NCBI GenBank assembly: GCA_030425205.1
Contig: JAUIAP010000031.1
Coordinates: 1 to 64,000, forward strand
Direction of reading: 5' to 3'
Length of the DNA stretch: 64,000 bases
Source of the DNA: Anaerolineae bacterium
GTDB lineage: Bacteria > Chloroflexota > Anaerolineae > Promineifilales > Promineifilaceae
Program-made: the position numbers and the translations under genes
Notes under the pieces: generated by a model
Told to the model about the DNA's origin: nothing
Database searches by the model: none
What the model saw: the letters and a program-made list of their open reading frames with translations, nothing else
Shown: one piece after another, positions 127 through 64,000 of the stretch
Layout of the letters: the number at the start of each line of letters is the position of its first letter
How positions within the stretch are numbered: the stretch's first letter is position 1

Positions 127-1286
127 ACCGAGACTTTGCCGAATTCGTCGAAACCAGTTTGGAAATCGGGATCGCGGACACAGTTGATCTGAACGACAAA
201 AAACTGACTGACATGCAGGACGAATGGGAGAGTTTGCTCATTGCCGTTCAGTATGGCGTATCGCTCTATCCAAAACTGACTGCAAAACTGTGTCTGGCAC
301 TTTTTCCCCTTTTTGAACGTGCAGGCGCAACTGCAATAGGGATCGAAAATTACACACGCCTGCTTGCTGCAACCTCTCTGCCCGCAGAAACACAGGCTCA
401 AATAGCTGACCGTCTAGGCGTTCTTTATCGCACACGAGGCGACAGCAATAAGGCGATTTTATACCATCAGCAGGCACTCAGCTTAACACAGAGTCGTCAA
501 CAAAAAGCGAAGTGTCACGTCCACAGCGCACTGGCCTATTTCGACCAGCACAATTATGCAGCGGCTCAACACCACGCCGACATTGCCACACAGTGTATGG
601 AACAAAGTGACGATCGGAGCTTGGGCTCATTACAAAACATTCACGGCTTGATTGCCCTTCATACAGGGCAGTACGAGCAAGCTATCACCTATTTTCAGCA
701 GGCGATCTCCGTTTGGAAAAAAATTGGCGACAAAAGCTATCATGGCACCACACTTAACAATCTCGGCTTAACACGAACCAAATTAGGACAATACGCAGAT
801 GCGTTACAGATTTTTGAGGAAGCGTTACTGATTATAGAAAAGACGGTCAATGAAACAGAGCGGGTGCGCATTCTGTTAAATACGGGCGTAATGTTTAACA
901 GACTTGGTCAGTTTGGAAAAGGATTACAAGCGTTTGAAAAAGCAGACCGCAAACAATTTCGCACAATACCAAACCCGAAACTTCAAGCCCAATTAGATAC
1001 AAGTATCGGCTACACCTTAATTCAACTGGCACGTCCAGAGGAGGCAATTCTCTCTCTAGATGACGCGCTTGAGAAATGGACGCTGTTGGCGGACAAACTA
1101 AATTTTGCCAATGCGCTAGGCGAGCGCGGTCGGGCTTGGATTCAATTGGGGGAGATAGAAAAAGGGCGCGCTGAGTTGGATGAGGCAATTTTGCAGTTAG
1201 CTCACTTTCAAGACGATGTTTGGGGCAAACAACTGTTGCAAGAGTTTCAACGTGAGCGAGAAAATGCGGGTCAATCGGCCGATTGA
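111..1286 (+). CDS. TPR-repeat protein, partner of upstream NB-ARC ATPase
   Basis: This 391-residue protein is built of tetratricopeptide repeats from about residue 90 to the end. Typical helix pairs are visible, for example 'G-x-Y-E-Q-A-I-x-Y-F-Q-Q-A' and 'L-G-Q-Y-A-D-A-L-Q-I-F-E-E-A'. There is no signal peptide or membrane segment, so it should be cytoplasmic. TPR arrays of this sort form the sensor arm of STAND regulators. Here the array is a separate gene whose ATG overlaps the end of the upstream ATPase frame, with GAGGTG as ribosome-binding site five bases before it. I infer a split STAND sensor. The final codons before the stop (Ser-Ala-Asp) are made by a TCGGCCGA palindrome at 1275-1282, centred in a 16-bp perfect palindrome. 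Confidence 0.75.
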   Translation: MAQEVDRDFAEFVETSLEIGIADTVDLNDKKLTDMQDEWESLLIAVQYGVSLYPKLTAKLCLALFPLFERAGATAIGIENYTRLLAATSLPAETQAQIADRLGVLYRTRGDSNKAILYHQQALSLTQSRQQKAKCHVHSALAYFDQHNYAAAQHHADIATQCMEQSDDRSLGSLQNIHGLIALHTGQYEQAITYFQQAISVWKKIGDKSYHGTTLNNLGLTRTKLGQYADALQIFEEALLIIEKTVNETERVRILLNTGVMFNRLGQFGKGLQAFEKADRKQFRTIPNPKLQAQLDTSIGYTLIQLARPEEAILSLDDALEKWTLLADKLNFANALGERGRAWIQLGEIEKGRAELDEAILQLAHFQDDVWGKQLLQEFQRERENAGQSAD

Positions 1287-1495
1287 CCTGTTTCTCAGTT
1301 AGCAGTCGGTTCCACTCCTAAAACCACGACGAGTTATCGCACTCTGACTTTGCGTTGCCGCATAAGGATTATGCGTTTGGGTTGTCCTACCGGGCTGATT
1401 ATCGAGGCGGCAGGTGCATCTATCATCATCGCAGAAGATGCAGATAAATATGCGTTTGCCAACACGCCCGACTACTCGTTTGCAACCAATCAAGA

Positions 1496-22622: not shown

Positions 22623-25600
22623 CTATTCTCGCTTTTTCCTCGTCAGGACGAACCACCCACTCAATGCCAGCAATAAACCAAACCAGAGGGGTGACAACCT
22701 GTTCACCACCCCGAATTCGGTTAGCGTGAGAGCCAGCGAATTCGGGTTAAGAATGAACTTGTTGTTATCGTGTGACGAGTCGGGCAAGCTGCCATCGACC
22801 ATTGCAGAGAAATATAACGCATCAAATGGGTCACCCGCTTCATTGTCCAACACGATCACGATCACTGCGGACTGCTGCTGCATCAACGTTGGCAACTCAC
22901 AATCGATCCCTGAGATACTACAGGTTCCCATCGTTGTTGTCACGTGTCGCACAGCCAACGATGTTGAAGCAACAACATGTACATTCTCGTTGGCACTCGG
23001 CCCGTTATTGAAGACGGTCAAGGTCACTGTCATGATCTCGCCGGTGCGGACTGTTGTCGTTTGCACCGTGCCAAACAGCGTCAAGTCAGCATAGACGGGA
23101 ACGGTCACGTGATAAGGGCCGCTCGTTGTGCTGTTGCCACCACGATCTGTTGTGTCGATCCAGAAGGTATGGTCGCCGACAGCCTGTGGGGTGAGTGTGA
23201 ATGCCCACTCGCCTGTTAGCTCATCAACTGCCACATCTGCCCACAAATTCTGCTCAGCATCAGTGTAGCCGCGCACCACGACATCTGCGGTCGTGCTGTT
23301 GTCGCTGACCGTTCCGCTGAGGATCGGAGCGGTCATTTCGCTGGGGGTCGGCGTTGCGATGTGCTGCGTGACGGTGATGACAGGCGCGACGGTGTCGATG
23401 TTGAGCGTGAGCGCAACTGGCTCAGCACTGCGGTTGCCCACCTCATCGAGTGATGTAACTTGCAACGTGCGCGTGATGCTCTCCGTGTTTTCTGACACGT
23501 TGAGCAGATAACGCCATGGCCAGTTTACGGTGATGTCGTCTCCCGCTTCCGCGAGAATGAGCTGACTGCGTTGGTAGGTTCCAGCATCGTCATCGCCATC
23601 GTCGCAGAGTGTCAACTGCCATGTCCCTGCGGCATCTTCACCGACGAACGTGCTGAGCGGTTCGGTGGGCGCAACGCGACGGTCATAGAAAGGTCGTCCA
23701 ATGTCGTCGCCGCCGCCAGCAAAGAGTGAAAGTCCTGCGGTGTCATCGAGGAGAATGTCAAAATCGGCCGATTCTGCCCCTGCACTATCATCCCCCACAA
23801 TCACGTTCACCAACGTCCCCTCTGGCGAAATCAGCTCAACCCAAACGTCACCGCGATACGCATGGCTGGCGTTAAAGCCGAGCTTGATATCACCAACGAC
23901 AAATGAACTGCCGACCTCAAACGTGCGGATGATTTCGCCGCCGCCGCACGCCGCGCTGATTTCGTCAAACGCAATCGGTGTAGCGGGGATGTCGTCGATG
24001 ATGAGGAGGTTTTCGGCCGATAACGCCGCCACCGTCGCAAGCGTCTCGCACGACTCACTGTTCGCAGTCACCGTACAGACTTCAACCGCCGTTACGCCGC
24101 TGTTGTCGTCGGCTAAACCCGTGATGGCAACCGTTTCCACACCAACCGTCGCGTCATCCAATGCGGCACTGTCTGGACCAATGCTGACGGTTGGTCGTAT
24201 TGCGTCGACCGTCACGTTGTTGGGTGCCGACCAGTTGCCAACGTGTCCATGAATATCGATGGCGCGTGCGGAGAGGGCAAAGTGGTCGGCATTGATCGCG
24301 CCACGGTTGTCCCACTCGCACGACCAGAAACCACCCTCCCCTTCAACGACACAGGCCAATGCTTGCGTCGCATCGTCAGCGAGGTTTGTCACGATCAGCT
24401 CGACCTGCGCCAGTTGCGATTCGTCATAAACGTATCCCGCAATCGAGACGACATCTGAACCGACCACATTCTGCGGTGTGTCGATGCTCAGGTAGACGGG
24501 CGGCACTGCATCAACGGAGTGATCAACCCAAATCCATTCGAGCGGATCGGCCGAAAGTTCTGCACTCAGCCCATCATCGACAAACGCATCAAGCGTCGCC
24601 CAGCCAAACTCGTCCGCATCGTTGTAGCAGTCATCGGGGTCTTCTGGCTCGTCCGCCATACATTCCTCATAGACCGCCACAATGTCGCTATCATCCAGCT
24701 CACCCACAAACGCAAACGTCGCTGTCTCGCCCGCTGGGATGTCGCCCATGTCGACGATCAGGTTTTCAAACTCGCCCGCATCGAATACGTCTGGCAGATG
24801 GAGCGCGTCCCACGCCGCAATATCGACAACGACCTGATTTGCGGGGCGCGTCCCCTTGTTCTCAACCGTCACGGTGAAGTTGATCTCCTCATCAATGCCG
24901 ACGGCGGGAATGTCTGTATCCAAGAAGCTAAACACGTCATCCTCTGATCCGACATCGTCAAAGATGACGGCATCCCAGAGCCAGAAGAGGCCGCTTTGTA
25001 GGAGGCTGTAGGTGATGCCGTCGGGATCGGCCGAAATTGTCACCGCCAAGCGCGAATCGACAAACTGCCCATCACTTGGCGCAATCCCCGCCCCCATGTC
25101 GAGCCATTGATATTGATGCGTCATCGCAAAGCGGTGGCTTTCGGCAAAGCCGTTTGTGCTGACAACGCGCTCGCTGTTGGCGGGATTATTGTTCGGCATC
25201 GCACCCCACAGACGCAGTTCGTACTCCTCAGAAGCAACCGCCAACATTTTGAAATTGACCGACGTGGGGTCGCCCACGCCCAGTGCATTGAACGGCAGAT
25301 AAAGGGCTGTCGTGCTACTTTCTGTCTGGAACTGTGCGTCCGTCAGCACGGTGTCCAACACCCATTTATCACCATCCCAGCGCATCAAGTCTGCATTGTC
25401 GCTATCTTGAATCCAGACGAGATAGTCCGCTTCATGTGCGTCGAGCGTGCGGGCATTGCGCTGCACGGCGGCCGATTGCTGTTGACGTGCGGTCAACTCT
25501 GGGCGATTGCCCGGCAGATAGATCAGCGTGTCAGCTTGCGTCGCGGGGTACGGGTTGTACAGCGTTGTCGCGCCACCACTGACCGTATCGAAGTAGATGA

Positions 25601-28600
25601 ACAGATCGCCGTCCACATCCCAATCAGCCCCCTGCCAATCAAGCCGCACGCCGTCGGCATCCCAACTGCCGTAAAGCTGTTGTTGTGCCGCCAATGTTGA
25701 CAGCGTTGCGACGGACTCCGTTAGCGCGGTCGTCTGCAACAAACCGATCAGCGTGTCGTCGTTGTGCCAATCGTTGTAATCGAGATTGGTGACAAGATCG
25801 GGGGTCAAAACGCGGTCGATGTAGTAGGGGCCAGAGCTGCTGACCGTCTCGTTGCCGACTGCATCGACCCCAATCAGGTGTGCATACATCGTGGCCTGAT
25901 CATTGACCGTGCCGACGTATTCGCGGTCGGTTGTCGCCAGTTCGGTCAGTTGTTCACGGGTCGCTGTCTCGCTTTCCGTCAACCCCGCATAGAGTTCAAC
26001 GAGATCATCGTCTTCTATTGTCCAACGCATCCGCAACATAGACGCATCGGTCAACGTCTGATAAGTGTTCGTCAACGTTTGCCATGTGCCATCTTGGTCA
26101 TAGGAGAACGCCACATCCAAGAAGGTGGGTGCAGCAATATCGACCGTCACCGTTTCTGTGATGATCGTCTGTTGATTTGCCCCATCAGTGGCACGCACCG
26201 TTGTCGTCATGCTCTCCGCAGTGAGATAGATCGGCTCCAATTCGAGTGACCAATTTCCAGCGGAAACGGTCGCCGCCTGCCACTCGCCGTTGCTGCCAAT
26301 TTGCACATCCACGATGGCATCTGGGTCTGCGCTCGTGATGGTTCCGACTATCTCAGTGGTGAAATAGCGACCCAAATCATCGACCCGTATCAGCTCTGTC
26401 GTCAACGTCACCTGTGGTGGGGCGATGTCGGTCATGATGGATCGTTCGCTGTTTTGTGACATCCGACTCGCTTGAGCAGGTGCGTCACCCAACAACCCTT
26501 GCCAGAGAACAGGTGAATAGGTTTGATTGCCTAGCGTGTCGGTGGCGCGGGTCATGATGGCGAAGCGATCCCTTGTTGTCGGAAGCGGTGCGTTCCACAA
26601 AATGCCGTGTCTTGCGTTGATGGCTGGTTCGAGCGTGGCGGGGTGCCACGTTGTGTTGTTGGCTGATTGCGATAACGCTGCCACCTCTGCATCGCTCAAC
26701 GCTCGCTTGTAGATACGCAGATCGTCAAGCGCACCGTTCAGATAGCCGCCAAGCGATCGGCCGATATAAATCAGTCCGTCATGCTGGGGTCGAACATGAT
26801 TGGACGTTTGCGCGTCGATTTGCCCATCGACAAAGATAGTTTGCACACCGCTGTTTTCGGCCGAATAGCGAAAGACCACGTGATACCAACGATTCGCGTC
26901 TAACACCTGATTGCCAAATGTGTCATTGTCCCAGAACGCCATCAGCCACTTGCGGTCACGCAGAACGAGGTGAACGTTTTGGTTGCTCTCTGCGGTCAAT
27001 CCGCTCAACAGCGGCTCATCGCCACCGTTAAATTGATCGACGTAGAGCCACGCGGCAACGGTGAAATCATCGCCCCCTTTCAAACCGAGCGTCTCACCTG
27101 TGTTCAGAACGACATGATCATCCACGCCGTCGAACTGCATGGCGCGGTCAACTTCTCCCGCCACTGAAACGGGGCAGGTGTTCGTACTACATGTGCCGTG
27201 TAGCGCATTGCCAGAGCTATCGGCGAGTCGCTGGCTGGGTTGTCTGTCGAAAGTGAGATGTAATTTTAGGCGGCCTTGCACATCGGCCGATTGCGCCAAC
27301 CGACCAATCTCCGCCTCGTTCAACGCCCGCTGATACACTCTGAAATCATCAACCGCACCGTCGAGATTTCCGCCCAACGACCCACCGAGATAGACCTTGC
27401 CGACATGCTCAGGCGGTATGTGGTTGACCGTCTGGTTGTCGAGTTGTCCATCAATGTAGATTGCTTGCTGACCTGTGCTGACCGTGTAGCGGAAGGCGAC
27501 ATGATACCAGCGGGCAACTTCCAATTCTTGCGTGCCGAACGTGTCGTTGCCCCAGAACGACATCAACCACTTGCGCTCACGCAAAACGAGATGGACATTC
27601 TTGTTTTGCTCGCCCGTCATACCGCTGATCAACGGTTCATTGAAGCTGTTGAACGCGTCAACACGCATCCACGCCGCCACGGTGAAATCACCGCTGTTAA
27701 AACCGAGTTCATCCCCTGTGGCAAGCTCGACTTGGTCATCCACGCCATCAAATTGCAGCGCATCCTGCCCTTTCCCCGTCGTCGTCGTTGGGCAACCATC
27801 GCCACTGCATGTTCCATGTAGTTGGTTACCGGAGCTATCGGCGAGGGGATTGCCGTCGCCGTCACCCGCGCTGAACTGTTCTTCAAAGCGCAGATGGGTG
27901 ATCGTGTTGGCTTGTGCCTCAATCTGACTCATCGGCACATACGCTACATCGACCGAGCTGATGTCGTCCCTAAACCCCGCTGTCTCGGTGGCGATTCCAG
28001 TGATGCGCTTGCCGTGCGCGGGAGTCAATGCGCCGCTGAGTGCCGCGATCTCGCTGTTCGACAACGGGCGTTGATAAATCCGCAAATCGTCAATCGCGCC
28101 ATCCCAATAGCCGTAGAGGAATCGTCCAACCTGTACCGCATCCGTCTGTTGCGGAGCGAAACGACTCACTGCAACAGCGTCTAGCTGACCATTTAGGAAA
28201 AGCGCAAGTTCGCTTGTCTCCGCCGTATAGCGGAATGTAGCATGATACCATTGACCTGTTTGAACGACTGTTTTGCCACCAACCGAGCTATTCCAGAAAT
28301 CCATGTACAGGCGTTGATTGCGAACGAGCATATGAATATTTTGACCGTCCCCGCGTGTCAAACCACCTACAATTGGTCTACCGATGTTTGTGTCATACGT
28401 CTCAAGATTGATCCACGCTGAAACGGTAAAGTCACCGCCGCCCAAGCCGACTATTGGCGCATCTGGCAGTGTCAGATGATCGTCAACACCGTCAAACACC
28501 AGTGTCGTACCGTGGACACCCGCGCTTGAACTTGCGGGACACGTTGCGCCCTGACAGGTCGCAACGTGTCCATTCCCACTCGCGTCCCAAGCAAGATTTG

Positions 28601-31600
28601 TTTGCGTTAGCTGGCTAATCGGCTCATTCAGCGGCAGGTGAACGCGCATGTCGTTGGGCGATGTGTCCCGCGACAGTTGCGCGACATCAAACTGAGAAAG
28701 CGCACTGTTGAAGAGACGGACATCATCGATCTGCCCTACCAAGTACGGCTTTTCATGAACGTAACCGACGAAGGCGTAGGTGTCGAAGTTGAAGATGGAA
28801 GCAGTAAGCTGCCCTGTTGCACGATGCACGCCATCAACGTATAGGCGTTGTGCGCCAACGTCACCACCGAACGTATGTACCACATGATGCCAACCGTTAT
28901 CAGCGAACGTTTCGGCCGTGCAGATCGTTTCGCTCGTGAAGACAAAAGCGCAGATACGCCCGCCGCTCGTGAAGATGGTGCGATCAAACGCGCCGCCACG
29001 GTCGGTGATCTCGAAGATGCCACAGTCAACACATTCCGTCTTCAGCCACAGCGATGCGCCATAGCTTGTTTCGGAAATATTGACAGGAAGTTGCAGAACA
29101 TCATCAACACCGTCAAAAAGAACGCTCGCTCCCGTTGAGCCTTGCCCTACGGTGATGGGGCAACTTCCTCTACATGTTGCATGATGACCATTGCCAGTTA
29201 AATCTATCCATTTGTTCGTCGCGTCGCGTTTGTCAAAGGGTAAGTTCACCTCTGGTTCTGGTGTCTGCCGCACATTGCGATAAAGTTGTGTGATTTCGTC
29301 TACAGTAATGGCATGGTCGAAGAGATGCACGTCTGACATTCGGCCGAAATACATGCTCCAATGTGCGGCCGAAGCATAGCCACCAAGGAAGTGATGGTTT
29401 ACGCCGTCATAGCGAATGTTGCCGGATGGATCGGCCGATTCAGCGACCAGCACCCCATTTTGATACAGGCGGGTCGTCTCACCATCATAAGTCGCGGCAA
29501 CGTGGTTCCACTGGTGAGGGGGCGCATGTTGCCAAGCTTCCATGCGTGTCACATCGTCGCCGCCGCCCTCCGTCGCCAACTCGAAGAATAAGTTTCCGTC
29601 ATGCGTGCCAATCGCCCAGCCCGCGTCTTTCGCATTGACCTTTTCTATTGCGCTCATGAACCCCATGTTCGGCGCGTAGCGGTCTGGGCGAACCCACATC
29701 GCCACGCTCATCTCTCTTTCAGGGAGAGCCGCGTTTGTTGTTTCTGCGCTGTATGGGAACACCAGCGGTTGATTATTGAACTGCACGCCGTTGGTGCCGC
29801 CGCTACCGACTGGGCAGCCAGTACAAGCTGCTGGCTGAAGGCCAGTGGGCGCACTGTTGACGAACTGCGTCACGCTTGCCACCTCGTTTAACGGCATGGC
29901 GATGAGGTCACCCTCTGCAACGACAAATTGATGCAAGCTGGCAACTGGCGCAGCGTTATCAATGGCAAGCTCGCCAACAACAATCGCTGCGCTTTGGTTG
30001 CCAGCGCTATCCGTCGCCCGCACCTGCACCTGATACCTGCCTGACGGTTCTGCGCCAAACGACGGCAGTTGATACGCTGGGATTTGCCATGTTCCGTTTG
30101 TGACGGTCGCTGCTTGCCATGTACCGCCCGCGCCTTGCAAGCCAACGGGCGACAGTTGCGCCTCAAGGGTTGCAAATCCGCTGACAGCAATGCCACCATC
30201 GCTACCCGTTCCAGATAGTGCGACCGTGAAGCTGCCGTCGCTGTGTGGGTCTGCTCTGATCACGTCTGCGGGCAACGCGGCCGTCGCAGTTGGCGCCGTG
30301 TTGTCAACTTGGAAAGTGCGAGTCTGAATCGCCTCCTCCACAAATCCGACGACATCGGTGGCGCGTGTCCTAATCGTATAGGTTCCCTCTGTCGAGACAG
30401 ATAGCGTATGCGCCCAACTGCCGCCACCAATCGCGGGTTGCCACGCGCCGTTGTTGACGCTCACCTCGACTTTGGCGATACCTGAGGTTGTGTCATCGGC
30501 CGATCCGCCCACGATCAGCGTCCCGTTTGCCTTGATAATCGCCCCCTCGCTGAGCGATGTGACAGAAGAAGTGGGCTTATCGTTGTCAACAACTAAATTG
30601 ACCGTTTCTCGTTGTGACGGCAAGTTGATTGGCACGTTTCGGTTAATTGCAACCTGCGTTTTCCGTAAATCGGTGTTGAATGGAGCCGTGTGAACGCACG
30701 TAAATTTAGTTACACTGGTTATTGAACCCAAACATGCCAAATCTGTCTGTTGATTCGTCGTGAATGTCCAATTCGTTTTCTCCGTCAACCCATACGCTTG
30801 ATCGCTAAACGCTCGATAGTGGAAGCGCGAATTGGTTTGCCAACCGACCAGCCACGCGCCTGAGCGCGGATCGAACGCCACTGCGGGAGATTCGGCTGGG
30901 GTAGCAGCGAGCTGGCGACTACTTCCAACCCTCTCAAGCGTCGTTGACAACGCTTGGCCTACGATTGCATCGTCCAGATTGTACGCAAGCAACATACGCG
31001 CAGATGATGGATTGAAAGCGAGCGTCGTCTCACCGATTTGGGAGGTGGCTGGTTTTTGTATGATGCGACGTTTGGCAACAAGGGAACCTGTCCCATCAAG
31101 CGTCGCTCCCCACATCTCCTTGTTGTTTGGTGAATTGTCTTCCAGCCAAACGGTCGTATAGTTGTCGTTTACCCCAACGATTGCATAATCGGAACTCTCT
31201 CTAGCGTCCGAAAGAACCGAGGGTGGCTCATACGCACCTGAATTTGAAACTGGATGCTTGATCAAGAGTTGACGGTCGTAATCATGGTGGAAACCGTTAT
31301 ATAGAACCACGAACGAATCACCATTGCTTGCAATACGGGTTCCAAAATCAACGTTGCCTGTTGATGGTGCAGCTTGACTATGAATCTGATCAACTGTTGC
31401 TGGATGATGACTGCCTGTCCAAGTATGATCAAAAGCGAGTTTTGAAGGATTGTTTGGGTCTGGCACCAAGCGAAACCGCAGCATCATGAGGTAGTTATGT
31501 ACGCTAAAAAACTCTGTTCTCACGCTGACAAGCACAGCACAAATGTTGCGGTCGCTTGCACACGCAATCGTGGGTGTTCCATATAGGTCTGCACGGCTTG

Positions 31601-37310: not shown

Positions 37311-38594
37311 CTAACGCTGCTTTTGTGCGAGATGTGTAGATCGGCCGATTAGCAAAACCAGTGCCAGCAGCACCAAAGAAATCCCCCAATTGATCTGCTG
37401 AGCCGTTTGCATCGCGTTCAGCTCAACCGCTGTTGGTGTCCCTGTGCTGTTCTCTACGATTTCATCGACTACATCTTGGAGGAATGTTTCGGCTGAATCG
37501 GCCGAATTGGTCAAAACCACAAACCCGACACCCCGATCTGGCATAAAGCCAACGACGCTGAGATAGTTGTCAAACGATCCCTCATGCAGGACTACATCCA
37601 CATCACCAACAAGCACTGTCTCCCAACCCAACCCATAATCTTCGAGTGCGGGTTGCCACATCTCCCGAATCGTGTTGGCGGCAACGATGCGTGTTCCATT
37701 CGGTGCCACGCCTTCGTTCAGTTGCGTCTGAACATAGATCGCCATCTCGCGCACGTTTGCCTTGATCGAGCCAGAGGGGGCGAGCGGATCGCCGTCGAAA
37801 TCTTCTGGATCAGCCTCGACCAACACGCCACCGTCTAAGATGTAGGATTTGCCATAGTTAGGATTGTTGGCGACGTCGCTGACGCGCACCCTTGCCGTCG
37901 TCATTCCCATCGGTTGCAAGACGGTATCTTCTAGCAGGTCGGCATAATCGTCGTAAAGCGCATCATCTTGTCCACTTTCAGCGATGACGGCTAAGTAACC
38001 AGCCGCCGTGGTCGAGAGATTGCTATAGCTAAACTGTTGACCGGGGGCGGCGAGTAGTTCGGCCGATTCTAAAAACGGTAACACATCCTGTGCCGTCGAG
38101 TTATCAATGTCAAAATCATCCTCGTTGTAGTCGGCAATGCCACTGCTCATGTTGAGCAGGTGGCGCAGCGTCACCGTATCGGTCGCCTGCTGTGTTTCAA
38201 GTGCGAAGTCGGGATAAATTTGAATGGCGGGCTCATCCCAATCCACGACTCCATCATCGACTAGCGTCGCCATCAGCAGTGCGGTGAACGATTTCGTGAT
38301 CGAGGCAATGTGAAAGAAGGTCTCCTCCGTCACGGGCAGGTTTGCCACTACATCACGCTTCCCAAACCCTTCCAACAGAATGATCTCATCTCCCCGCACA
38401 ATCGCAGTGGCAACCCCCGCAATCTTGTCTGACGCAATACGATCACTGATAAATGTACGATAGGCGGCAACGTCAGCCGCATTCCAGCCAGCCGATCTCT
38501 TCGCACTCACGGTTGTGGGCGAAAAATTCTGGGGAGGCAGTCCCGTGCAAGCCAATAAAACCAGCGCGAGTAAAATGATGTATGCTGTTTTCAT
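37311..38594 (-). CDS. Beta-lactamase/DD-peptidase-family serine hydrolase, lipoprotein
   Basis: This 427-residue protein has a lipoprotein signal with LLAC (Cys16). The class C beta-lactamase/penicillin-binding fold is shown by Ser98-x-x-Lys101 (SITK), Tyr190-Ser-Asn192 and His337-Glu-Gly. These are the nucleophile/base motifs of esterase EstB-like, DD-carboxypeptidase or D-aminopeptidase members. A C-terminal hydrophobic helix (INWGISLVLLALVLLI) followed by basic residues gives a second membrane contact. It should act outside the membrane. The substrate could be a peptide, ester or beta-lactam and cannot be told from motifs. It has its own terminator, and its promoter region contains the REP/MITE-like element at 38732-38872. 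Confidence 0.87.
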   Translation of the reverse strand: MKTAYIILLALVLLACTGLPPQNFSPTTVSAKRSAGWNAADVAAYRTFISDRIASDKIAGVATAIVRGDEIILLEGFGKRDVVANLPVTEETFFHIASITKSFTALLMATLVDDGVVDWDEPAIQIYPDFALETQQATDTVTLRHLLNMSSGIADYNEDDFDIDNSTAQDVLPFLESAELLAAPGQQFSYSNLSTTAAGYLAVIAESGQDDALYDDYADLLEDTVLQPMGMTTARVRVSDVANNPNYGKSYILDGGVLVEADPEDFDGDPLAPSGSIKANVREMAIYVQTQLNEGVAPNGTRIVAANTIREMWQPALEDYGLGWETVLVGDVDVVLHEGSFDNYLSVVGFMPDRGVGFVVLTNSADSAETFLQDVVDEIVENSTGTPTAVELNAMQTAQQINWGISLVLLALVLLIGRSTHLAQKQR

Positions 38595-47718: not shown

Positions 47719-47748
47719 ATCATTTTCGGCCGAATTATCAATGCTCGA

Positions 47749-48211: not shown

Positions 48212-51200
48212 GTGAACGGTGAGGCTACATTGGGATTGTATGATCCGAGGCAGCGGACATCCGTCGTTCCACCACGTGCTCTACGCTTGCCAGCGCAAGG
48301 TTCATCTAGCGCAACCCTAATACGATCTCTCAACAATCTCATCGAACAACACAGCGAAACCCCGATCCGCTTTCAAAATTGGCGCGGTGAAACGATTGAG
48401 AAGCGGTTGACTGAACAAATTGGTCACGCTGGGAATTTTCCACGTGTAGATTACCACAGGGAACGTGCCGCAAATGTAGCAAACTTCCCGTTGGCGGAGG
48501 TGTGGTTGGAATGGTGGGCGGGACAATCGGCCGATCTGCGCGAACCCAACGACTTTGGCCTCTATCGCCTGACTGCGCTTCTATTTGCAACCGATCACTT
48601 TTCGCATCGTAGTCAAGTTCCAAGCTGGATTAGGGAGATCATCCGCCTAACGGTTGGAGAGACAGATGGCACGATGCAACAGTCGACACATCGGCGAGTT
48701 GCCATCCGCGTCGTCGAATGGCTCTGCTATCTCGTTGATCCCCATCCCATCCTAGACACACTGCTCGATCTCGCTGAACAAGCCAATCAGTTGGCACAAA
48801 TTCCGCCACTTGACGAGCGCGGAGAATCTTTATTTTCGGTCAACAAACATTGGCAATTTTGGCTTAGACTGTTGGCGCGGCATCGCCAACAGCAACCCAA
48901 CCGTTGGCAAGATCGCCACCACATTCGCTATTGGCAACTGTTGCACTGGCTCGACCAGCCCGAACCGCACTACCATCGCTGCTGGCCTGATTTTGAGACG
49001 TTGATACAGGCGCTTGTGCGTGGTGCAGCGAACGAACATGATCTGTATGACCAGTTAATCGGCCGATGCACCTGCCAAATTTGCCAAACAGACGAAAATG
49101 CGCACCGTTTTCTACGTGATCTCGACAATGCCAGCCAGCGACATCCCAACACGAAAAAGTTTCCCCTGAGCGATCACCTTTATGTGCAGACCGCAGTAGA
49201 AAACATACGTCGGCGCGTGGTTGAACTCGAACGACAGCGTGATGAGATAGCAACGGCGGCCTCGTCCATCTTGCATCGCCTCAGCGACACAGGTGGGATT
49301 GAGACAATGCTGCCAATCGTCGCGGCATTGGGCAACAAGACGTTAGTGCATGGCTGGACGGCTGAACGCGAATCACGCGCCGCCACGTTCGCGCACCTCA
49401 TACGCGCCAGCTCCCCTCGTCCGAATGACACAATTCCCGCATTCATCACCGCTGTACAGGAGTACGACATTCAACCCAAACAACTACTCCGTATCGCGCT
49501 ATTTGCACCACAATGGGCGCGGCATATCGAGGCAGTGATCGGCTGGCCGAAATTGGCGGAGGCAGTTTGGTGGCTACACGCCCATCTCGCAAGCGGTGGC
49601 TGGCAGGGGGAGGAGATCAGTGACGTACAGGTCGCGGAAATTAGAAAGCGCACTGTCTTGACTGACAAGGAGCGATTGGCGGGAGCGGTCGATGTTGCAT
49701 GGTTTTGGCGCGTTTACCACGTCCTCGGCGCCGAACGCTGGGCGCAAATCAACAAATTGGCTAAATATACTGCTACCAGCGGCGGACACAAGCGGGCGCA
49801 ACTGTTCGCGGATGCCCTGCTGGGTAAGTTGGATGAGATCGCCCTGCTCGACCGAGTAATCAAAAAGCGGTATCAAGATGGCGTGCGGGCAATTGGGTTG
49901 TTGCCATTGCCAGATGCAGAACGGGATGAAGTCCTCCTACGCCGTTATCTCGCGTTGCAAAACTTTCTCAAAAGCGACCGAAAGATCGGTTCACAACGTC
50001 GCGCCAATGAAAAACAGGCGGTCGAGATTGGGTTGGCAAATCTGGCACGCACAGCTGGCTATCTCGATCCACAGCGGCTGCAATGGGCGATGGAGCAGCA
50101 CGCCGTCGCCGATCTGGCACAAGGTGCAGTCGCAGTCACTATTGAGGAGACGACCGTCACGCTCTCCATCGACTTTCTCGGTGAGCCACAGCTTGCGGTC
50201 AACAAAAACGGGCGCACGCTCAAAAACATCCCCGCCAAGCTAAAAAAGCAGCCAGCCGTGATGCAGTTGATTGAACGGCGCAAGACGTTGCGTCAGCAAG
50301 TGCGTCGAATGCGGCAGACGTTGGAGGCGATGATGGTGCGCGGTGAGATGGTGCGTGGTGCGGAGTTGCAACCGCTTTTTGGACATCCCTTATTGCAACC
50401 GCTGTTGGAGGATCTGCTCTTTGTCAGTGATGATGGGGTTGGTTATGTTGAAGGGACACAATTGGTTGATTATGCGGGTGAATGGGTTGCGTTTTCGGCC
50501 GAAACATCTCTACGCATCGCCCATCCCCATGACCTTTATCTGCGTGGTGACTGGCACTTGTGGCAACGCGACTGCTTCCGTCGGGAACGGATCCAGCCAT
50601 TCAAACAGATTTTCCGCGAACTGTACGTCGTTACGCCAGCCGAACTTACGGCGGGAACACATTCCGCCCGTTATGCTGGGCAACTGGTTTATGCGGGGCA
50701 GGCAAGCGCATTGTTAGGGAGCAAAGGCTGGGTCGTGACTTTCAATGAGCCAGCACGCCGCAGCTTCCCAGAGAAAGATTTGACAGTGTGGCTCAACACG
50801 TCCAGCGGGTACTATTTTGACAGTAGCGGCACGTTGACGCTCGACACCCTGCATTTTACACGACAGTCCGATCATGCCTCTGTCCCACTAGCAGATGTCC
50901 CTGCCCGTATTTTTAGTACTGTAATGCGTGATCTCGATCTTGTCGTCAGTGTCGCACATGCTGGCGGGGTTGATCCGGAGGCAACTGTATCGACTGTCGA
51001 GCTGCGTGGGCAGATGGTGATGGAATCGGCCGAACTGCTCAAACTCACCAACGTGCATGTGGATGGCAACCGTGTTTGGATCGACGGCTCACGGAATCGT
51101 TACACCGTACATCTTGGCAGTGGTGTGATCCACCAGCAACCAGGCGGCTATCTGTGTATCGTGCCTGTCAGCCGACAGCGTCGCGGGCGGATCTTCCTCC

Positions 51201-51328
51201 CCTTTGTTGACGATGATCCGAAATCGGCCGAAATTATTGCGAAAGTCATGATGCTTGCACGGGATGAAAAGATAAAAGACCCGACCATACTGCAACAAAT
51301 ACAAACAAGAGTCAGAGAAATCCCATAA
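48212..51328 (+). CDS. DUF5724/DUF4132/DUF7737-type large protein
   Basis: This 1038-residue soluble protein starts at a GTG with no gap after the preceding stop, implying translational coupling. The N-terminal 550 residues are helical, HEAT-like, with Trp-rich motifs and a Cys cluster (RCTCQICQ). A central region (LQWAMEQHAVADLAQGAVAVTI ... VTLSIDFLGEPQLAV) fits DUF4132. A C-terminal part beginning 'FKQIFRELYVVTPAEL' and ending 'GGYLCIVPVSRQRRGRIFLPFVDDDP' fits the last domain of this family. MolR-like DUF4132 proteins have no firmly established activity. No signal peptide, membrane helix or ATPase motif is visible. Six TCGGCCGA copies occur in the gene. Confidence 0.7.
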   Translation: MNGEATLGLYDPRQRTSVVPPRALRLPAQGSSSATLIRSLNNLIEQHSETPIRFQNWRGETIEKRLTEQIGHAGNFPRVDYHRERAANVANFPLAEVWLEWWAGQSADLREPNDFGLYRLTALLFATDHFSHRSQVPSWIREIIRLTVGETDGTMQQSTHRRVAIRVVEWLCYLVDPHPILDTLLDLAEQANQLAQIPPLDERGESLFSVNKHWQFWLRLLARHRQQQPNRWQDRHHIRYWQLLHWLDQPEPHYHRCWPDFETLIQALVRGAANEHDLYDQLIGRCTCQICQTDENAHRFLRDLDNASQRHPNTKKFPLSDHLYVQTAVENIRRRVVELERQRDEIATAASSILHRLSDTGGIETMLPIVAALGNKTLVHGWTAERESRAATFAHLIRASSPRPNDTIPAFITAVQEYDIQPKQLLRIALFAPQWARHIEAVIGWPKLAEAVWWLHAHLASGGWQGEEISDVQVAEIRKRTVLTDKERLAGAVDVAWFWRVYHVLGAERWAQINKLAKYTATSGGHKRAQLFADALLGKLDEIALLDRVIKKRYQDGVRAIGLLPLPDAERDEVLLRRYLALQNFLKSDRKIGSQRRANEKQAVEIGLANLARTAGYLDPQRLQWAMEQHAVADLAQGAVAVTIEETTVTLSIDFLGEPQLAVNKNGRTLKNIPAKLKKQPAVMQLIERRKTLRQQVRRMRQTLEAMMVRGEMVRGAELQPLFGHPLLQPLLEDLLFVSDDGVGYVEGTQLVDYAGEWVAFSAETSLRIAHPHDLYLRGDWHLWQRDCFRRERIQPFKQIFRELYVVTPAELTAGTHSARYAGQLVYAGQASALLGSKGWVVTFNEPARRSFPEKDLTVWLNTSSGYYFDSSGTLTLDTLHFTRQSDHASVPLADVPARIFSTVMRDLDLVVSVAHAGGVDPEATVSTVELRGQMVMESAELLKLTNVHVDGNRVWIDGSRNRYTVHLGSGVIHQQPGGYLCIVPVSRQRRGRIFLPFVDDDPKSAEIIAKVMMLARDEKIKDPTILQQIQTRVREIP

Positions 51329-53410: not shown

Positions 53411-54220
53411 TTAAAAAGGGGACTCTACATCTGTCAGTGATTGCAGCCATTGGTTCAGCCAATTAAGTGCATCCTCAAATTTATTAACAGGTAGTGTTTT
53501 ATAGCTGTTGATACTGTACCGGCGATAAAGTTCGCCATAGACACCCCCGTACTCATTTCTGCCCGAACGCTTCCCTAGCTCAACCGCGATTGCCTTGACA
53601 GCTTGGCTAATTTGCATCGCTTGATCTGGTGTAATATGACGATCTGGGTGGCCTAACTGATTTTCGATCAGTTCGAGCCTTTGTTCATGACTAGATAGGC
53701 GGCCTTCATGATTGTTTAGCTGAGATTCCAAAAGAAGCTGTTGACGCGCCATTTTCATAATGGCATTTGCCATTTTATAGGCTTGAGCAGCGGGTGAATC
53801 CCCTTCTAGTAGTTCTAAGAAAGTGGGTTCTGATGTCAAACCTCCCTCTTGGAACGCTTCATTCAGCACTTCATAGCATTCACGTTGATAGCGAACAAGT
53901 TTGTCAGTGACCTCTGGTTTGACACGACTTGCATTAATGCCAAACAAGAAGCCACTGATGTATTTTAGGGGTAGGCATAGTTTGTTTGGATTACCCCCTA
54001 GGGAGTTTGTTGCCGTTACGGCAACAATCCTCACCTCTTCCGCTAAAACGAGGTCACGGCGCATTCGTCGCGTTTGTGCTGCCCAGTCGACGCCGAGTAA
54101 CTCGCAGATCGGCCGAACTGGAACATATACCTCCCCATTCTCCAATCGGACAGCGACGATTTGATCATCGTAAAATGAAACAGTCTTTTGGTCAACGGGT
54201 ACAATTGCATTATTACTCAT
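53411..54220 (-). CDS. Phage-type antirepressor (P22_AR_N and ORF6C domains)
   Basis: This 269-residue protein has an N-terminal domain with 'VSFYDDQIVAVRLENGEVYVPVRPICELLGVDW' and 'LVLAEEVRIVAVTATNSLGG', ending 'CLPLKYISGFLFGINASRVKP', which is the P22 antirepressor N-terminal (BRO-like) domain. A coiled-coil linker at about 145-190 follows (LLLESQLNNHEGRLSSHEQRLELIENQL). The C-terminal domain 'ITPDQAMQISQAVKAIAVELG' to 'YGELYRRYSINSYKTLP' matches ORF6C. These proteins relieve phage or plasmid repressors. The gene is 35 bp downstream of the ribbon-helix-helix gene, same strand, which marks the cluster as mobile-element derived. Confidence 0.85.
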   Translation of the reverse strand: MSNNAIVPVDQKTVSFYDDQIVAVRLENGEVYVPVRPICELLGVDWAAQTRRMRRDLVLAEEVRIVAVTATNSLGGNPNKLCLPLKYISGFLFGINASRVKPEVTDKLVRYQRECYEVLNEAFQEGGLTSEPTFLELLEGDSPAAQAYKMANAIMKMARQQLLLESQLNNHEGRLSSHEQRLELIENQLGHPDRHITPDQAMQISQAVKAIAVELGKRSGRNEYGGVYGELYRRYSINSYKTLPVNKFEDALNWLNQWLQSLTDVESPF

Positions 54221-59037: not shown

Positions 59038-59072
59038 ACACGGTGACCATTCCACCCAAAGCAACAAGCTAG

Positions 59073-60452: not shown

Positions 60453-60572
60453 ATGAATATCATCGGGTTGTCCGCCTTTTACCACGATTCTGCCTGTTGC
60501 CTAATTCAAAACGGCGAGATTGTCGCTGCCGCTGCGGAAGAACGCTTCTCGCGTCGCAAGCATGATCCTGCC
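60453..60572 (+). pseudogene. NodU/CmcH-family carbamoyltransferase, truncated after 40 residues
   Basis: The sequence MNIIGLSAFYHDSACCLIQNG then AAAAEERFSRRKHDPA is an almost perfect carbamoyltransferase N-terminus (the HxxSAC carbamoyl-phosphate motif and EERFxRxKHD). These enzymes are normally about 550-600 residues. Identity stops abruptly near 60572. The remaining 55 codons of the frame are the complement of the PD40 gene ending at 60597. No continuation of the enzyme is found in the rest of the window. A deletion or insertion therefore removed more than 90 percent of the gene. Confidence 0.85.
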
Positions 60573-60596
60573 AACCGCTGCTTTTCGTTAATTGTA

Positions 60597-61313: not shown

Positions 61314-61526
61314 CAGTGTACGCGGGGTATGGTGCGAACTTGGGATTCGCGCTTAATGGACCTCAAACATAGATGATAAAATGATCACGTTCTGTTGGAT
61401 AGAAAACTCATTGAGAGTTGTTTTAGTTTAACATCATTTTCAACTATCTTGAATTCAATTCGCCACTTAGATATATAGTGGGCTACCTCACTTTAAATGG
61501 CGAAATAGCTGCCTCTGAAGATAATC

Positions 61527-62918
61527 CTAGTTGAGATTAAGCTGTTTAAGAACAAACTTAGTCACGGGGCCGCTGATCTGTTGCAGGATTGGGTTGGCGA
61601 AAGTGCTCGCGATGGTTGTAATAGCGGTAGGGACGAGCTTTGTGAGGCTCTGTAGTAACGTTCCAATCTTTTCGTCGTCTGCCTTATCCCCTTTTTTTGC
61701 CTCTGCCTTAATCGCTTCGACTTTTTGGATGGCATCGGGCATCGCTGCACCAGTGGCCTCTTTCATCATTGTCCTGATAAGCGGCACGAAAAGCTGGTCG
61801 ATTTGGTTATTTAAAACGTTTGTGTTGATTTGGTCGCCGCCAACAATGCTGCCGCCCACGGAGAATGTTCCACCGCTACCAACTTGAATATCGACACCCC
61901 CTACACGCTTATTGCCGCCGATAATATTGTCGTTGCCAATGATGTTGCCGTCACCCGTGATGATGTTTCCCTGACTATCACCCTGAACGATGACGCTGCG
62001 TTCACCACCCGCAATTGCACCATCCCCAATCGCGCCCGCGCCGCTCCCAACGGAGACCTGCATCGGCGGGGGCGGTGTGTTAACAACGGTTGGCTCAGTT
62101 TCTATCCTGAGGTCATCGAACGGTAGATCTTTGGGCTTTAAATCCCCGCCAGCGTAGTAAGCGATGACAAAATTATCGGCGCGGTCAAGTTCAAGAACAG
62201 GATTTTGCACGATTCCCATTTGTGGTGGCACGAGCTCTGGAACACGTCGGCCGACATACTGGCTTACATCAGTTAAACGCACAAAACCATCCTGTCTGGC
62301 AACCGATTTACCCCCTAATGCCTCAAGTAATGCATGGGTGAAAATACTGTGAGGGTAGGCGGCAATGGACTTCTCACTGGCGCGAGAGGAAGCGATAAAC
62401 GCGACCCCACTACCGCTGCCCAACATGTCGAGAGCCTCCTGCGGCATGGCTGACTTGACAAACGTGAGCGACTCAGCTGACTTAATTTGTGTCGGATCAT
62501 AGCCACCCGCGTGGCAGCAATCGAATAGTACGAGCAGCTTCTTGGACGGAATTTTTTTGAGCAAGCGTGCGAACTGTTTTCCTGAGAGTGCAGTCTGACG
62601 TAACTGCTTCGGATCATAGCCATTCGTCAATAAATAGCCTATGTCGTCATGTTCGGTCTGCACCTCTGTACCGTGACCCGAATAGTAGACAATGACTGTT
62701 GATGTTTCGTCCGTGCGTTTTGCCAGACTTTCTAACTCCCTGACAATGCGCTGCACATTTGCATCCTTTTCTGTCAATAAAACAACCTGATCATCTGGGT
62801 AGGCACAAAATGCTTCATTGCTTAAAAAAGCAGCAACATCTTTTGCATCAGTGACGGTGCTTGTTAGATCTGCGCCGACACCGATGATAAGGGCATGACC
62901 CTGTGTGAATAGTGACAT
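61527..62918 (-). CDS. Caspase-like protease with Gly-rich solenoid and helical C-terminal domain
   Basis: This 463-residue protein has three parts. Residues 1-255 are a caspase/metacaspase (C14) domain with catalytic His82 (YYSGHG) and Cys135 (LFDCCHAGG), plus 'VAFIASSRASEKS' and 'SIFTHALLEAL'. A proline linker lies near 281-286. Residues 287-365 are a low-complexity repeat of Gly/Ile/Asn/Asp (GDGNIIGNDNIIGG, then GSIVGGDQIN) that looks like a beta-solenoid or filament-forming segment. Residues 370-463 are helical and contain 'MMKEATGAA' and a hydrophobic end. A similar repeat starts the divergent STAND-like protein at 63162. I infer a death-effector protease activated by co-assembly with that NTPase. 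Confidence 0.87.
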   Translation of the reverse strand: MSLFTQGHALIIGVGADLTSTVTDAKDVAAFLSNEAFCAYPDDQVVLLTEKDANVQRIVRELESLAKRTDETSTVIVYYSGHGTEVQTEHDDIGYLLTNGYDPKQLRQTALSGKQFARLLKKIPSKKLLVLFDCCHAGGYDPTQIKSAESLTFVKSAMPQEALDMLGSGSGVAFIASSRASEKSIAAYPHSIFTHALLEALGGKSVARQDGFVRLTDVSQYVGRRVPELVPPQMGIVQNPVLELDRADNFVIAYYAGGDLKPKDLPFDDLRIETEPTVVNTPPPPMQVSVGSGAGAIGDGAIAGGERSVIVQGDSQGNIITGDGNIIGNDNIIGGNKRVGGVDIQVGSGGTFSVGGSIVGGDQINTNVLNNQIDQLFVPLIRTMMKEATGAAMPDAIQKVEAIKAEAKKGDKADDEKIGTLLQSLTKLVPTAITTIASTFANPILQQISGPVTKFVLKQLNLN

Positions 62919-63161
62919 TATGTTCCCCTTTGAAAATAGCCACGAATTGCGCGAATTACGTGAATTGAATAGCTGTTTTCATTCTTTGTTGGTGAGTTGC
63001 TTAATTCATGGCAACTTCTGCATTAACCGCTGTTTGATGTTCAGGCAGCATTGTAGTTTAAAAATCGATTTGGGTGATTGTCCCACAGTATATGTTGCCA
63101 CATGGATTCCAAAAGAACCTTTTTGTTTCTATCTGGCTGGGAAAGGGTTTACAATGGGGGT

Positions 63162-64000
63162 ATGTCGGAGCAAATCGCACAGACAATTCAGACAGGGTCG
63201 GGTGCAACAGCGATTGGCGCACATAGTCAGGCGGTGGGAGCGGCTGGCGTGTTGATCGGCGGGTCGAGCTATGGGGATATTACGACCAATGTGGCGATTC
63301 AGGGGGCTTCGGAAGCGTTGCTGCAAAAGATCTACGCCGAGTTGAATCGACCAGAAATCGGCGACCTCTTTGAGATCATCGATGATCCGCAACAGCTATT
63401 GCCCACGCTATTTGATGATGTAGCACAATTTGCCAGCCCCTATCGCACAGATTACCGTGAGACGGTGTGGCAATTGTCGCCAAAACATCTGCTGCGGCCG
63501 CTGCTGCTGACAGGCGTGCGCGGGATGGGACGCACGCGCGAGGTGGCAGCGTTTGCCCGCCGACTTTGTGCTGAACGCGGGTGGACGATCTATATCGCCA
63601 AGCCAACGAAAAGCCAACGAATGGGGGAGGTCGCGGGCGTGCCGGTTGATCGAAAAATCTTGCTGATCGTTGAGGAAATCGGCCGATATTCACCCACCTA
63701 CTTAGACCGTCTCAATGCCTTGATCCGTCAATTGCAAAAAGACCCCCAATTAACGCTGGCCGTGATTGCCACGACGACAGCGAGCGCTGCTGAAACGGGC
63801 TGGGAGACAGTCGCCCTGCCCAACTTTTCGACGGCTGGATTGACGCGCTTTCTGGAAGATGTCGCCGCCGTTGCAGGCTTAGCTATCACAACGGCGTCGG
63901 CCGAGCTAGTCACCCGCAGCGATGGGACGCCCAAAACGATTATTGAGAACGTGCGCCATGCCCAGCGCACGGGTGGGGAGATCGGGTTGACTGGTTGGGA
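63162..64000 (+). CDS. STAND/AAA-like NTPase with solenoid-type N-terminus (partial)
   Basis: Frame from ATG 63162 to the window end (279 residues, no stop). Residues 10-40 read 'TGSGATAIGAHSQAVGAAGVLIGG', a repeat like that in the caspase 240 bp away on the other strand. After a helical spacer comes a P-loop-like 'LLLTGVRGMGRTREVAAFARRL' (118-125 is GVRGMGRT, with Arg where Walker A has Lys) and 'KILLIVEEIGRY' in the Walker B position, then a sensor strand 'LAVIATTTAS'. The plan fits a STAND/AAA sensor NTPase. The Lys-to-Arg change may reduce ATP hydrolysis. GGGGG stands immediately before the ATG. The sensor domain is expected downstream, outside the window. Confidence 0.75.
   Translation, partial: MSEQIAQTIQTGSGATAIGAHSQAVGAAGVLIGGSSYGDITTNVAIQGASEALLQKIYAELNRPEIGDLFEIIDDPQQLLPTLFDDVAQFASPYRTDYRETVWQLSPKHLLRPLLLTGVRGMGRTREVAAFARRLCAERGWTIYIAKPTKSQRMGEVAGVPVDRKILLIVEEIGRYSPTYLDRLNALIRQLQKDPQLTLAVIATTTASAAETGWETVALPNFSTAGLTRFLEDVAAVAGLAITTASAELVTRSDGTPKTIIENVRHAQRTGGEIGLTGW

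What the first reader, a model, noticed from the sequence alone, without database searches (positions are those of the whole stretch)
1275..63904. TCGGCCGA is a HIP1-like highly iterated palindrome
I count 73 copies in 64 kb, against about one expected for any octamer at balanced base composition. The copies are spread through unrelated genes on both strands and in several reading frames, so protein sequence does not explain them. HIP1 in cyanobacteria (GCGATCGC) behaves the same way. This is a different octamer in what looks like Chloroflexota, and I do not know it to be described. The core CGGCCG and inner GGCC suggest a link with a solitary DNA methyltransferase, as proposed for HIP1.
Basis: partly seen in the sequence, partly recalled or inferred. 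Interest (0 to 1): 0.9.

Follow-up and report, generated by a model that had tools for sequence, protein, structure and literature searches.

The report
Genome-wide palindrome tag in Chloroflexota bacteria
One eight-letter DNA palindrome is repeated about nine thousand times across this bacterium's genome; relatives carry the same six-letter core with a different outer letter pair, and the repeats are preserved, leave a mark on proteins and sit where the DNA strand bias reverses, while no shared DNA-methylating enzyme was found to explain them.

Summary
TCGGCCGA occurs 73 times in the window (1.3-1.8 expected) and 9,414 times in the 7.8-Mb genome, against 27 for the reversed control. It is one form of a family-wide highly iterated palindrome (HIP) with core CGGCCG in Chloroflexota related to Ardenticatenia/Promineifilum: ACGGCCGT is abundant in 19 of 32 family genomes counted, TCGGCCGA in two, GCGGCCGC in one, and some show no outer preference. 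Outside the family no genome exceeded 430 ACGGCCGT in the class draw, and none but G000 exceeded 655 TCGGCCGA in the phylum draw.

The methyltransferase link is not supported: 16 of 30 family genomes have no PF00145 match, including the one with most sites.

New properties: in 12 of 12 directed comparisons sites stayed intact more often than control 8-mers; tripeptides SAE/SAD or TAV are 2.7-6.9 times over-used; phage contigs carry the palindrome; composition flips from G-rich to C-rich across sites, strongest at synonymous positions.

Best reading, inferred: recognition site of a polar DNA-processing machine; the protein is unknown.

The parts
1275..63904 (.). 73 copies of the palindrome TCGGCCGA, starting at 1275, 1578, 1791, 2499, 3180, 3705, 4502, 4604, 5732, 6079, 7412, 8283, 8625, 9297, 9675, 11658, 12836, 13475, 14164, 15374, 16636, 17287, 18051, 19942, 20122, 23764, 24013, 24547, 25027, 26757, 26857, 27283, 29340, 29431, 30496, 31792, 32371, 34270, 35446, 36328, 36798, 37341, 37498, 38059, 41118, 41872, 42333, 43507, 43884, 44402, 45020, 46547, 47686, 47726, 47829, 48527, 49059, 50495, 51026, 51224, 51428, 52154, 54109, 55192, 56606, 57107, 58507, 58978, 59293, 60628, 62247, 63679, 63897 (each 8 bases)
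1275..1282 (.). first copy; in frame 0 of ORF 111-1286 (+), where it reads S-A-D/E
47726..47733 (.). the one copy outside every ORF of 100 aa or more
37341..37348 (.). example copy in frame 1 of ORF 37311-38594 (-), a Beta-lactamase-family (PF00144) protein
54109..54116 (.). example copy in frame 2 of ORF 53411-54220 (-)
63897..63904 (.). last copy

Best explanation
SHOWN: TCGGCCGA is this genome's form of a family-wide highly iterated palindrome with core CGGCCG. The outer base pair differs by lineage (A..T, T..A, G..C, or none); the sites are conserved above background, leave a mark on protein sequence, occur in phage contigs, and in the A- and T-type genomes sit where the local strand composition flips from G-rich/C-poor (5' side) to C-rich/G-poor (3' side). 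INFERRED: the palindrome is the recognition site of a sequence-specific protein of a polar DNA-processing machine that acts on both strands towards or away from the site, most likely in recombination or repair (functionally like a symmetric Chi site, or a translocase-orienting site such as KOPS). DNA lacking a site nearby is processed worse or degraded, so sites are favoured in the chromosome and in phages, are kept or re-fixed when mutated, and can become evenly spread. A change in the protein's contact with the outermost base pair would let the palindrome switch form while the core stays. The protein has not been identified.
For: Copy number and specificity. Core with four outer-pair states, broadly following an RpoB tree. 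Conservation above control 8-mers in 12 of 12 directed comparisons: for example 18 of 20 sites intact at 85% identity (control 29%), 11 of 16 at 75% (11%), 7 of 9 at 72% (8%). Even spacing in this genome: variance/mean 0.52 in 122 windows of 5 kb, Poisson 95% range 0.75-1.26, 31 control hexamers minimum 0.84, median 1.28. Polarity: G-C skew towards the site +0.14 to +0.28 at 11-20 bp, falling to +0.025 to +0.044 at 301-400 bp, in G000, G008, G723 and a pool of ACG-type relatives; at four-fold degenerate positions 11-20 bp from the site G is 0.52 and C 0.16 in G000. Control palindromes with 49 or more sites (seven in G000, three in G723) stay within 0.06 of zero G-C skew at 11-100 bp, and non-HIP CGGCCG shows no such profile. 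Strictly intergenic flanks show the skew to 20-30 bp. Phage contigs with head, tail or packaging matches carry the palindrome at 15-35 per 10 kb.
Against: No protein is identified. PDDEXK_1 proteins of AddB/AddA/RecB length (over 900 aa) match in only 6 of 30 genomes, so the classical Chi enzymes are not the common reader. Known Chi and KOPS sites are not palindromic (recalled). T is not raised at four-fold sites near the palindrome (G000 A 0.159, T 0.159; G723 A 0.140, T 0.091 at 11-20 bp), so plain cytosine deamination of exposed strands does not explain the skew. G723 sites are not evenly spaced (variance/mean 1.41 in 5-kb windows) and G008 sites are even only up to 2 kb. Phages have the palindrome without the wide skew, and of the no-preference genomes G001 shows weak skew and G006 none. 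Between the two T-type genomes only 1 of 4 and 1 of 3 aligned sites are shared. Some four-fold control bins deviate (CGATCG in G000 +0.188 at 1-10 bp, GGCGCC in G723 -0.173 at 31-50 bp).
Confidence: 0.42

Rival explanations
1. Methyltransferase-linked HIP (the first reader's view; the model proposed for HIP1 and alternate HIPs by Elhai 2015): an orphan methyltransferase marks CGGCCG and methyl-directed mismatch repair creates and keeps the sites.
For: [quoted passage not shown] G001, with a bare CGGCCG form, has a HaeIII-type restriction gene next to a C5 methyltransferase. The window genome has four PF00145 matches and G008 one.
Against: No PF00145 match in 16 of 30 family genomes, including G002, G011, G018, G019, G023, G710 and G723, all rich in sites. 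G006 matches neither family; G723 has only two PF01555 matches, best E 4.6e-4. No cluster among the 66 methyltransferase loci compared spans more than 4 genomes (not every match was compared). C-to-T neighbours at position 2 are only mildly raised (O/E 1.4-1.8).
Confidence: 0.1
2. DNA uptake sequence: a competence receptor prefers DNA with the palindrome, and transformation spreads it (molecular drive), as in Neisseriaceae and Pasteurellaceae.
For: Similar density (average USS spacing about 1,000 bp in H. influenzae, PMC7811141 passages); forms with a shared core; strong proteome footprint, a topic of Findlay and Redfield 2009 for uptake sequences (title seen in a reference list); even spacing in G000.
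Against: Phage contigs carry it as densely as hosts or more densely. The composition flip around each site is not an expected result of uptake. Uptake sequences known to me are not palindromic (recalled). Competence genes were not tested.
Confidence: 0.15
3. Functionless biased gene conversion or biased mismatch repair in cells with several chromosome copies turns near-matches into the palindrome; phage genomes are converted too.
For: Eligible tripeptides are near saturation (79-98% are HIP-coded). Neighbours differing at core position 3 are at 0.39-0.63 of expectation for a genome's own form and 0.70-0.87 for the other form. Phages share the palindrome.
Against: Even spacing in G000 is not expected from a local conversion bias. 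It does not by itself give the wide G/C flip. Order-3 expectations for near-matches are rough.
Confidence: 0.18
4. Binding site of an abundant nucleoid or chromosome-organising protein that phages also need.
For: Palindrome with independent half-site flanks at -2 and -3 (mutual information near bias level in the four large sets); preference extends a few bases beyond the octamer.
Against: Sharpness: neighbours changed at core positions 2-4 are at 0.39-1.38 of expectation for a genome's own form, the outermost position at 1.10-3.99, unlike tolerant nucleoid-protein motifs (recalled). No strand polarity is expected.
Confidence: 0.15

Closest known systems
HIP1 (GCGATCGC) of cyanobacteria
   Same: Palindromic octamer as the dominant 8-mer, about 0.5-2.5 per kb, deviations mainly at the first and last base (PMC4390886: abstract and sections 7, 12 and two of three parts of 14 read; here). 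HIP1-dense viral contigs also exist, and HIP1 on two Trichormus plasmids shows a smaller flank skew of the same sign.
   Different: Different phylum and core (CGGCCG, not CGATCG); no shared methyltransferase found; much stronger flank skew; outer base pair switches within one family. The 50-kb Synechocystis plasmid sample (31 sites) shows no clear HIP1 skew.
Alternate HIPs of cyanobacteria (TCGATCGA, GGGATCCC, GGCGCC, rCCGGy, GCsGC; Elhai 2015)
   Same: One palindrome replaced or joined by another in related genomes (sections 7 and 12).
   Different: There the alternates are rare and each such genome has a putative methyltransferase; here a whole bacterial family shares a core without one in common.
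DNA uptake sequences (USS/DUS)
   Same: Density, proteome footprint, lineage-specific forms (the last two for uptake sequences recalled or from titles).
   Different: Palindromic, present in phage contigs, wide strand-composition flip.
Chi and KOPS sites
   Same: Over-represented octamers linked to G-rich strands (recalled); a symmetric version could give the flip seen here.
   Different: Palindromic, several times denser than E. coli Chi (recalled), and the classical enzymes are not family-wide.

Membership tests
HIP class (highly iterated palindromes) | A palindrome that is the dominant over-represented 8-mer genome-wide | tested here: met
   (8-mer ranking on 635 kb, count on the whole genome)
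HIP class (highly iterated palindromes) | Spread through coding (three frames) and non-coding DNA at about 0.5-2.5 per kb | tested here: met
   three frames; outside every ORF of 100 aa or more 0.69 per kb in G000, 1.38 in G008, 2.00 in G723, elsewhere 1.33, 1.43, 1.93
HIP class (highly iterated palindromes) | One-base deviants biased to the first and last base | tested here: met
   own-form O/E at position 1 against positions 2-4: G000 3.99 vs 0.46-1.32, G723 2.03 vs 0.63-1.19, ACG pool 2.79 vs 0.63-1.38; exception G008 1.10 vs 0.39-1.23
HIP class (highly iterated palindromes) | A cognate methyltransferase in every genome (reported for cyanobacteria) | tested here: not met
   other enzyme families not searched. 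I treat this as a reported correlate rather than part of the definition
HIP1 proper | Sequence GCGATCGC | tested here: not met
   1 copy in the window
DNA uptake sequence | Preferential uptake by competent cells | not testable with these tools
   needs cells; competence genes were not searched
DNA uptake sequence | About one site per kb with proteome footprint | tested here: met
Chi site | Read by RecBCD, AddAB or AdnAB type helicase-nuclease | tested here: inconclusive
Chi site | Strand-polar effect at the site | tested here: inconclusive
   composition flip fits polarity but is not a direct assay
Restriction-modification target | Methyltransferase and nuclease of that specificity present | tested here: inconclusive
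   G000 neighbours are HaeII-type (L006), TdeIII-type beside a methyltransferase frame with a stop (L007), a weak sub-cut-off BsaWI-type match (L005) and an unassigned gene (L008); none of the named types is known to me to read TCGGCCGA, specificities were not assayed

The most novel reading that the evidence does not exclude
Highly iterated palindromes, including cyanobacterial HIP1, are a general class of bidirectional DNA-processing landmarks (a palindromic counterpart of Chi/KOPS), read by a fast-changing protein without DNA methylation; they organise strand composition at sub-kilobase scale, alter proteomes and are adopted by phages as a pass through the host's DNA processing.
Probability: 0.3. 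Interest if true: 0.95.

Novelty: new variant of a known kind. Interest (0 to 1): 0.85.

Why it matters
HIP1 has long lacked an explanation, and the model of Elhai 2015 rests on methyltransferases. Here is a second HIP system in another phylum, at similar density, that persists in genomes where the expected methyltransferase families are missing or nearly so, switches its outer base pair between related lineages, and leaves a strand-polar composition mark around its sites. That gives a direct test (does HIP1 carry the same mark on chromosomes?), a natural comparison of forms for finding the reader protein, and phages that carry the tag. It also points to a DNA-level force strong enough to raise specific tripeptides 2.7-6.9 fold.

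Tried and rejected
Orphan C5 or N4/N6 methyltransferase as common driver: rejected on distribution. AddAB/RecB-type enzyme as common Chi reader: not family-wide. Phage host by terminase homology: no match in 37 genomes, so hosts of the palindrome-rich phages are not shown. Skew as plain cytosine deamination: T is not raised at four-fold sites. HIP as a by-product of tripeptides: rejected, since it also occurs in other frames and in intergenic DNA. Pairing of flanks (RNA or cruciform): no dyad covariation at -2 and -3 in the large sets.

Script faults found and how they were handled: the first rpoB codon alignment mixed strands and was redone. The near-match table used one background for all genomes and was redone. 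The bins beyond 75 bp are inflated by a slicing fault and are not used. One search stopped on an error after printing the count; one search stopped after its main output and its control was redone. The ORF caller drops some overlapping genes, so intergenic figures are taken from the strict recount, made for this check.

Rows dropped or selected: the ACG pool was chosen after one search had shown those genomes to be ACG-type. The density filter saw 257 viral loci (L408 was left out by a range slip) and passed 28: 25 A-type from 19 contigs and 3 T-type; L539 and L544 are GC-rich and may be chance. The phage pool is 20 of the 25, from 14 contigs, with a few overlaps. Methyltransferase proteins were compared for 66 loci, not for every match. 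The HIP1 test used 350 kb of two Trichormus plasmids and 50 kb of one Synechocystis plasmid, no chromosome.
Full report
Observation. The window holds exactly 73 copies of TCGGCCGA between 1275 and 63904, against 1.28 expected from base composition and 1.80 from an order-3 Markov model; the next 8-mer palindrome has 4 copies. In the whole genome (G000, 7.79 Mb, 96.3% complete, 7.7% contamination) there are 9,414 copies against 27 for the reversed control. In 635 kb of this genome, with a background trained on masked sequence, O/E is 84; other 8-mer palindromes are at about 3 or below.

Distribution. Of 40 relatives, TCGGCCGA is very abundant only in G008 of the same family (7,668) and raised in G001 of the same genus (1,326); next come G006 (771, control 213) and G004 (605, control 106). 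In 400 genomes drawn from the phylum none but G000 exceeds 655. Sampling stretches of family members showed why: many carry another palindrome with the same core. ACGGCCGT occurs 2,982-14,867 times in 19 of 32 family genomes of a class-wide search, and no genome outside the family exceeds 430; the other 13 family genomes have 83-1,727. G015 uses GCGGCCGC (38 in 23.6 kb, O/E 94); G001 and G006 have CGGCCG without outer preference. In 80 named loci of relatives, the 45 with RpoB identity of 77% or more include A-, T-, G- and no-preference types and some without enrichment; the 35 more distant loci show no comparable enrichment. The titles there (Ardenticatenaceae, Ardenticatenia, Promineifilum, Anaerolineae) place the family; the window's own record is not named. 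On an RpoB tree the T-type genomes G000 and G008 group with G001, apart from the main ACG-type loci; the G-type locus groups with mixed and no-preference loci; the loci titled Promineifilum fall in a site-poor clade. Types of loci under 7 kb are unsure.

Methylation. Elhai (PMC4390886; abstract, sections 7 and 12 and two of three parts of section 14 read) ties the cyanobacterial HIPs to putative methyltransferases. Here PF00145 matches in 14 of 30 family genomes and is absent from 16, including G002, G011, G018, G019, G023, G710 and G723, all rich in ACGGCCGT. PF01555 matches in 27 of 30, but G723 has two matches with best E 4.6e-4 and G006 none. Among 66 methyltransferase loci compared, the largest cluster spans 4 genomes. 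In the window's genome L006 sits beside a HaeII-type gene and L007, which has a stop in frame, near a TdeIII-type gene; L005 has a weak BsaWI-like neighbour and L008 an unassigned one. So a shared cytosine methyltransferase of these families is not the driver; other modification chemistry was not tested.

Conservation and effect on proteins. In homologous stretches around rpoB, sites stay intact more often than control 8-mers in 12 of 12 directed comparisons: G022 to G635 16 of 16 and back 16 of 18 (93% identity; control 58%); G723 to G022 and back 18 of 20 each (85%; 29%); G723 to G635 16 of 16 (86%; 31%); G710 to G723 11 of 16 and back 11 of 27 (75%; 11%); G023 to G011 4 of 4 (9%); G018 to G023 7 of 9 (8%); G011 to G018 4 of 5 (9%); between the two T-type genomes only 1 of 4 and 1 of 3 (7-8%). 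In the rpoB codon alignment of 27 genomes one site is ACGGCCGT in 18. SAE and SAD are used 5.1 and 3.5 times expectation in G000 and 6.5 and 2.7 times in G008; TAV 6.9 times in G723 and 5.2 times in the ACG pool; 79-98% of them are palindrome-coded where codon usage predicts 6-15%. The 35 distant loci lack the effect, although SAD is 1.9 times expectation there with 6 of 76 palindrome-coded. Sites also occur in the other frames and outside every ORF of 100 aa or more.

Spacing. In G000 the sites are more even than random (variance/mean 0.52 in 122 windows of 5 kb; Poisson 0.75-1.26); 31 hexamers of similar abundance have a minimum of 0.84 and a median of 1.28. G008 is even only up to 2 kb, and G723 is not even.

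Phages. Scans of IMG/VR found contigs with dense ACGGCCGT. Of 11 A-type contigs of which I tested one or more proteins, 6 gave head, tail or packaging matches: tape-measure proteins in L405 and L390 (L390 and L535, with a head-protease match, are one contig), large terminases in L395 and L349, a portal in L293, a tail-spike match in L377. L538 gave lysis-type peptidase matches, L301 an FtsK-like and a lytic-transglycosylase match, L289 a weak replication match, and the proteins tested from L336 and from L540/L311 gave none (contigs). Pooled, 475 sites in 184.5 kb, O/E 57; TAV is 7.1 times expectation with 163 of 168 palindrome-coded. L506 carries 11 TCGGCCGA and no ACGGCCGT beside a phage primase-helicase; L545 (6 TCGGCCGA) gave no match. 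Hosts are not shown: the L395 terminase has no match in 37 family genomes.

Strand-composition flip. On the strand running 5' to 3' towards a site, G exceeds C: skew +0.321, +0.275, +0.189, +0.165, +0.098 in successive 10-bp bins in G000, +0.044 at 101-150 bp and +0.025 at 301-400 bp; G008, G723 and the ACG pool have +0.140, +0.212 and +0.188 at 11-20 bp and the same decline. Control palindromes with 49 or more sites (seven in G000, three in G723) stay within 0.06 of zero at 11-100 bp; three further control words had too few sites to read; CGGCCG outside the palindrome context shows no such profile. The skew is strongest at third and four-fold positions. Strictly intergenic flanks show it too: +0.302, +0.218, +0.161 in the first three bins in G000 (errors about 0.065), +0.160, +0.159, +0.129 in G008, +0.301, +0.189, +0.044 in G723, and no consistent signal beyond. 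At four-fold positions 11-20 bp away in G000, G is 0.523, C 0.160, A 0.159, T 0.159 (n 2,382); skew +0.325 in G008, +0.417 in G723, +0.276 with error 0.131 in G015; five controls are within 0.06 of zero there, with single deviating bins elsewhere (CGATCG in G000 +0.188 at 1-10 bp, GGCGCC in G723 -0.173 at 31-50 bp). In phages it is weak (+0.07, error 0.04, at 11-20 bp) and absent or reversed beyond 50 bp; it is weak in G001 and absent in G006. HIP1 on Trichormus plasmids shows a smaller skew of the same sign (four-fold +0.14 and +0.15 at 11-30 bp, errors about 0.07; +0.06 at 101-200 bp, error 0.026); a 50-kb Synechocystis plasmid sample shows none, and HIP1-dense viral contigs give mixed signs. 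The HIP1 result is suggestive only.

Mechanism. Shown: sharp sequence specificity, conservation, proteome effect, outer-pair forms, presence in phages, a symmetric polar composition mark in A- and T-type genomes, no common cytosine methyltransferase found. Inferred: a protein reads the palindrome as a stop, start or protection signal for a polar DNA-processing machine. The skew trades G for C without raising T at four-fold sites, so it is not simple deamination; selection for G-rich, C-poor strands leading into the site (as for RecA loading or translocase orientation, recalled) or an unusual mutation spectrum could produce it. Phages with the palindrome but without the wide flip fit a site that is selected first and a composition mark that builds slowly on the chromosome.

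Literature. Ten searches were run, of which some were aimed at such a sequence. I saw listings for all, passages of PMC7811141 and PMC3497702, the abstract and outline of PMC1939737 and parts of PMC4390886. In what I saw there is no report of a Chloroflexota HIP or of skew around HIP1; papers outside this library were not seen.

Noticed in passing
L577, L611-L616; L579-L610: HIP1 (GCGATCGC) on Trichormus plasmids shows a weak flank skew of the same sign, and 16 viral loci are dense in HIP1 (518 sites in 156 kb).
   Followed up: partly
G000 sample of 204 kb (window, L062-L068): CCGG is depleted nearly four-fold (217 against 814 expected by an order-1 model) in a genome with a C5 methyltransferase (L005) whose neighbour weakly resembles BsaWI.
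   Followed up: no
L025 and L029 (G001): A HaeIII-type restriction gene and a C5 methyltransferase occur where GGCC outside CGGCCG is depleted and CGGCCG is about ten times over-represented (180 against 17, both strands) without outer preference.
   Followed up: no
window 22623-37016 (-): A single ORF of 4,797 aa on the minus strand carrying 16 of the 73 palindromes; its function was not examined.
   Followed up: no
window 61527-62918 (-) and 48212-51328 (+): A caspase-domain protein (Peptidase_C14) and a DUF5724/DUF4132 protein.
   Followed up: no
G000, G008, G723 and ACG-pool flanks: Form-specific flank preferences beyond the octamer: A/T at -1 in T-type genomes, G at -3 and -4 in ACG-type genomes, G at -7 in G000.
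   Followed up: partly
L395:6596-7963 (+): A palindrome-rich phage contig encodes a borderline N6/N4 DNA methylase (PF01555, E 5.7e-6, 26.9 bits against a cut-off of 26.7).
   Followed up: no
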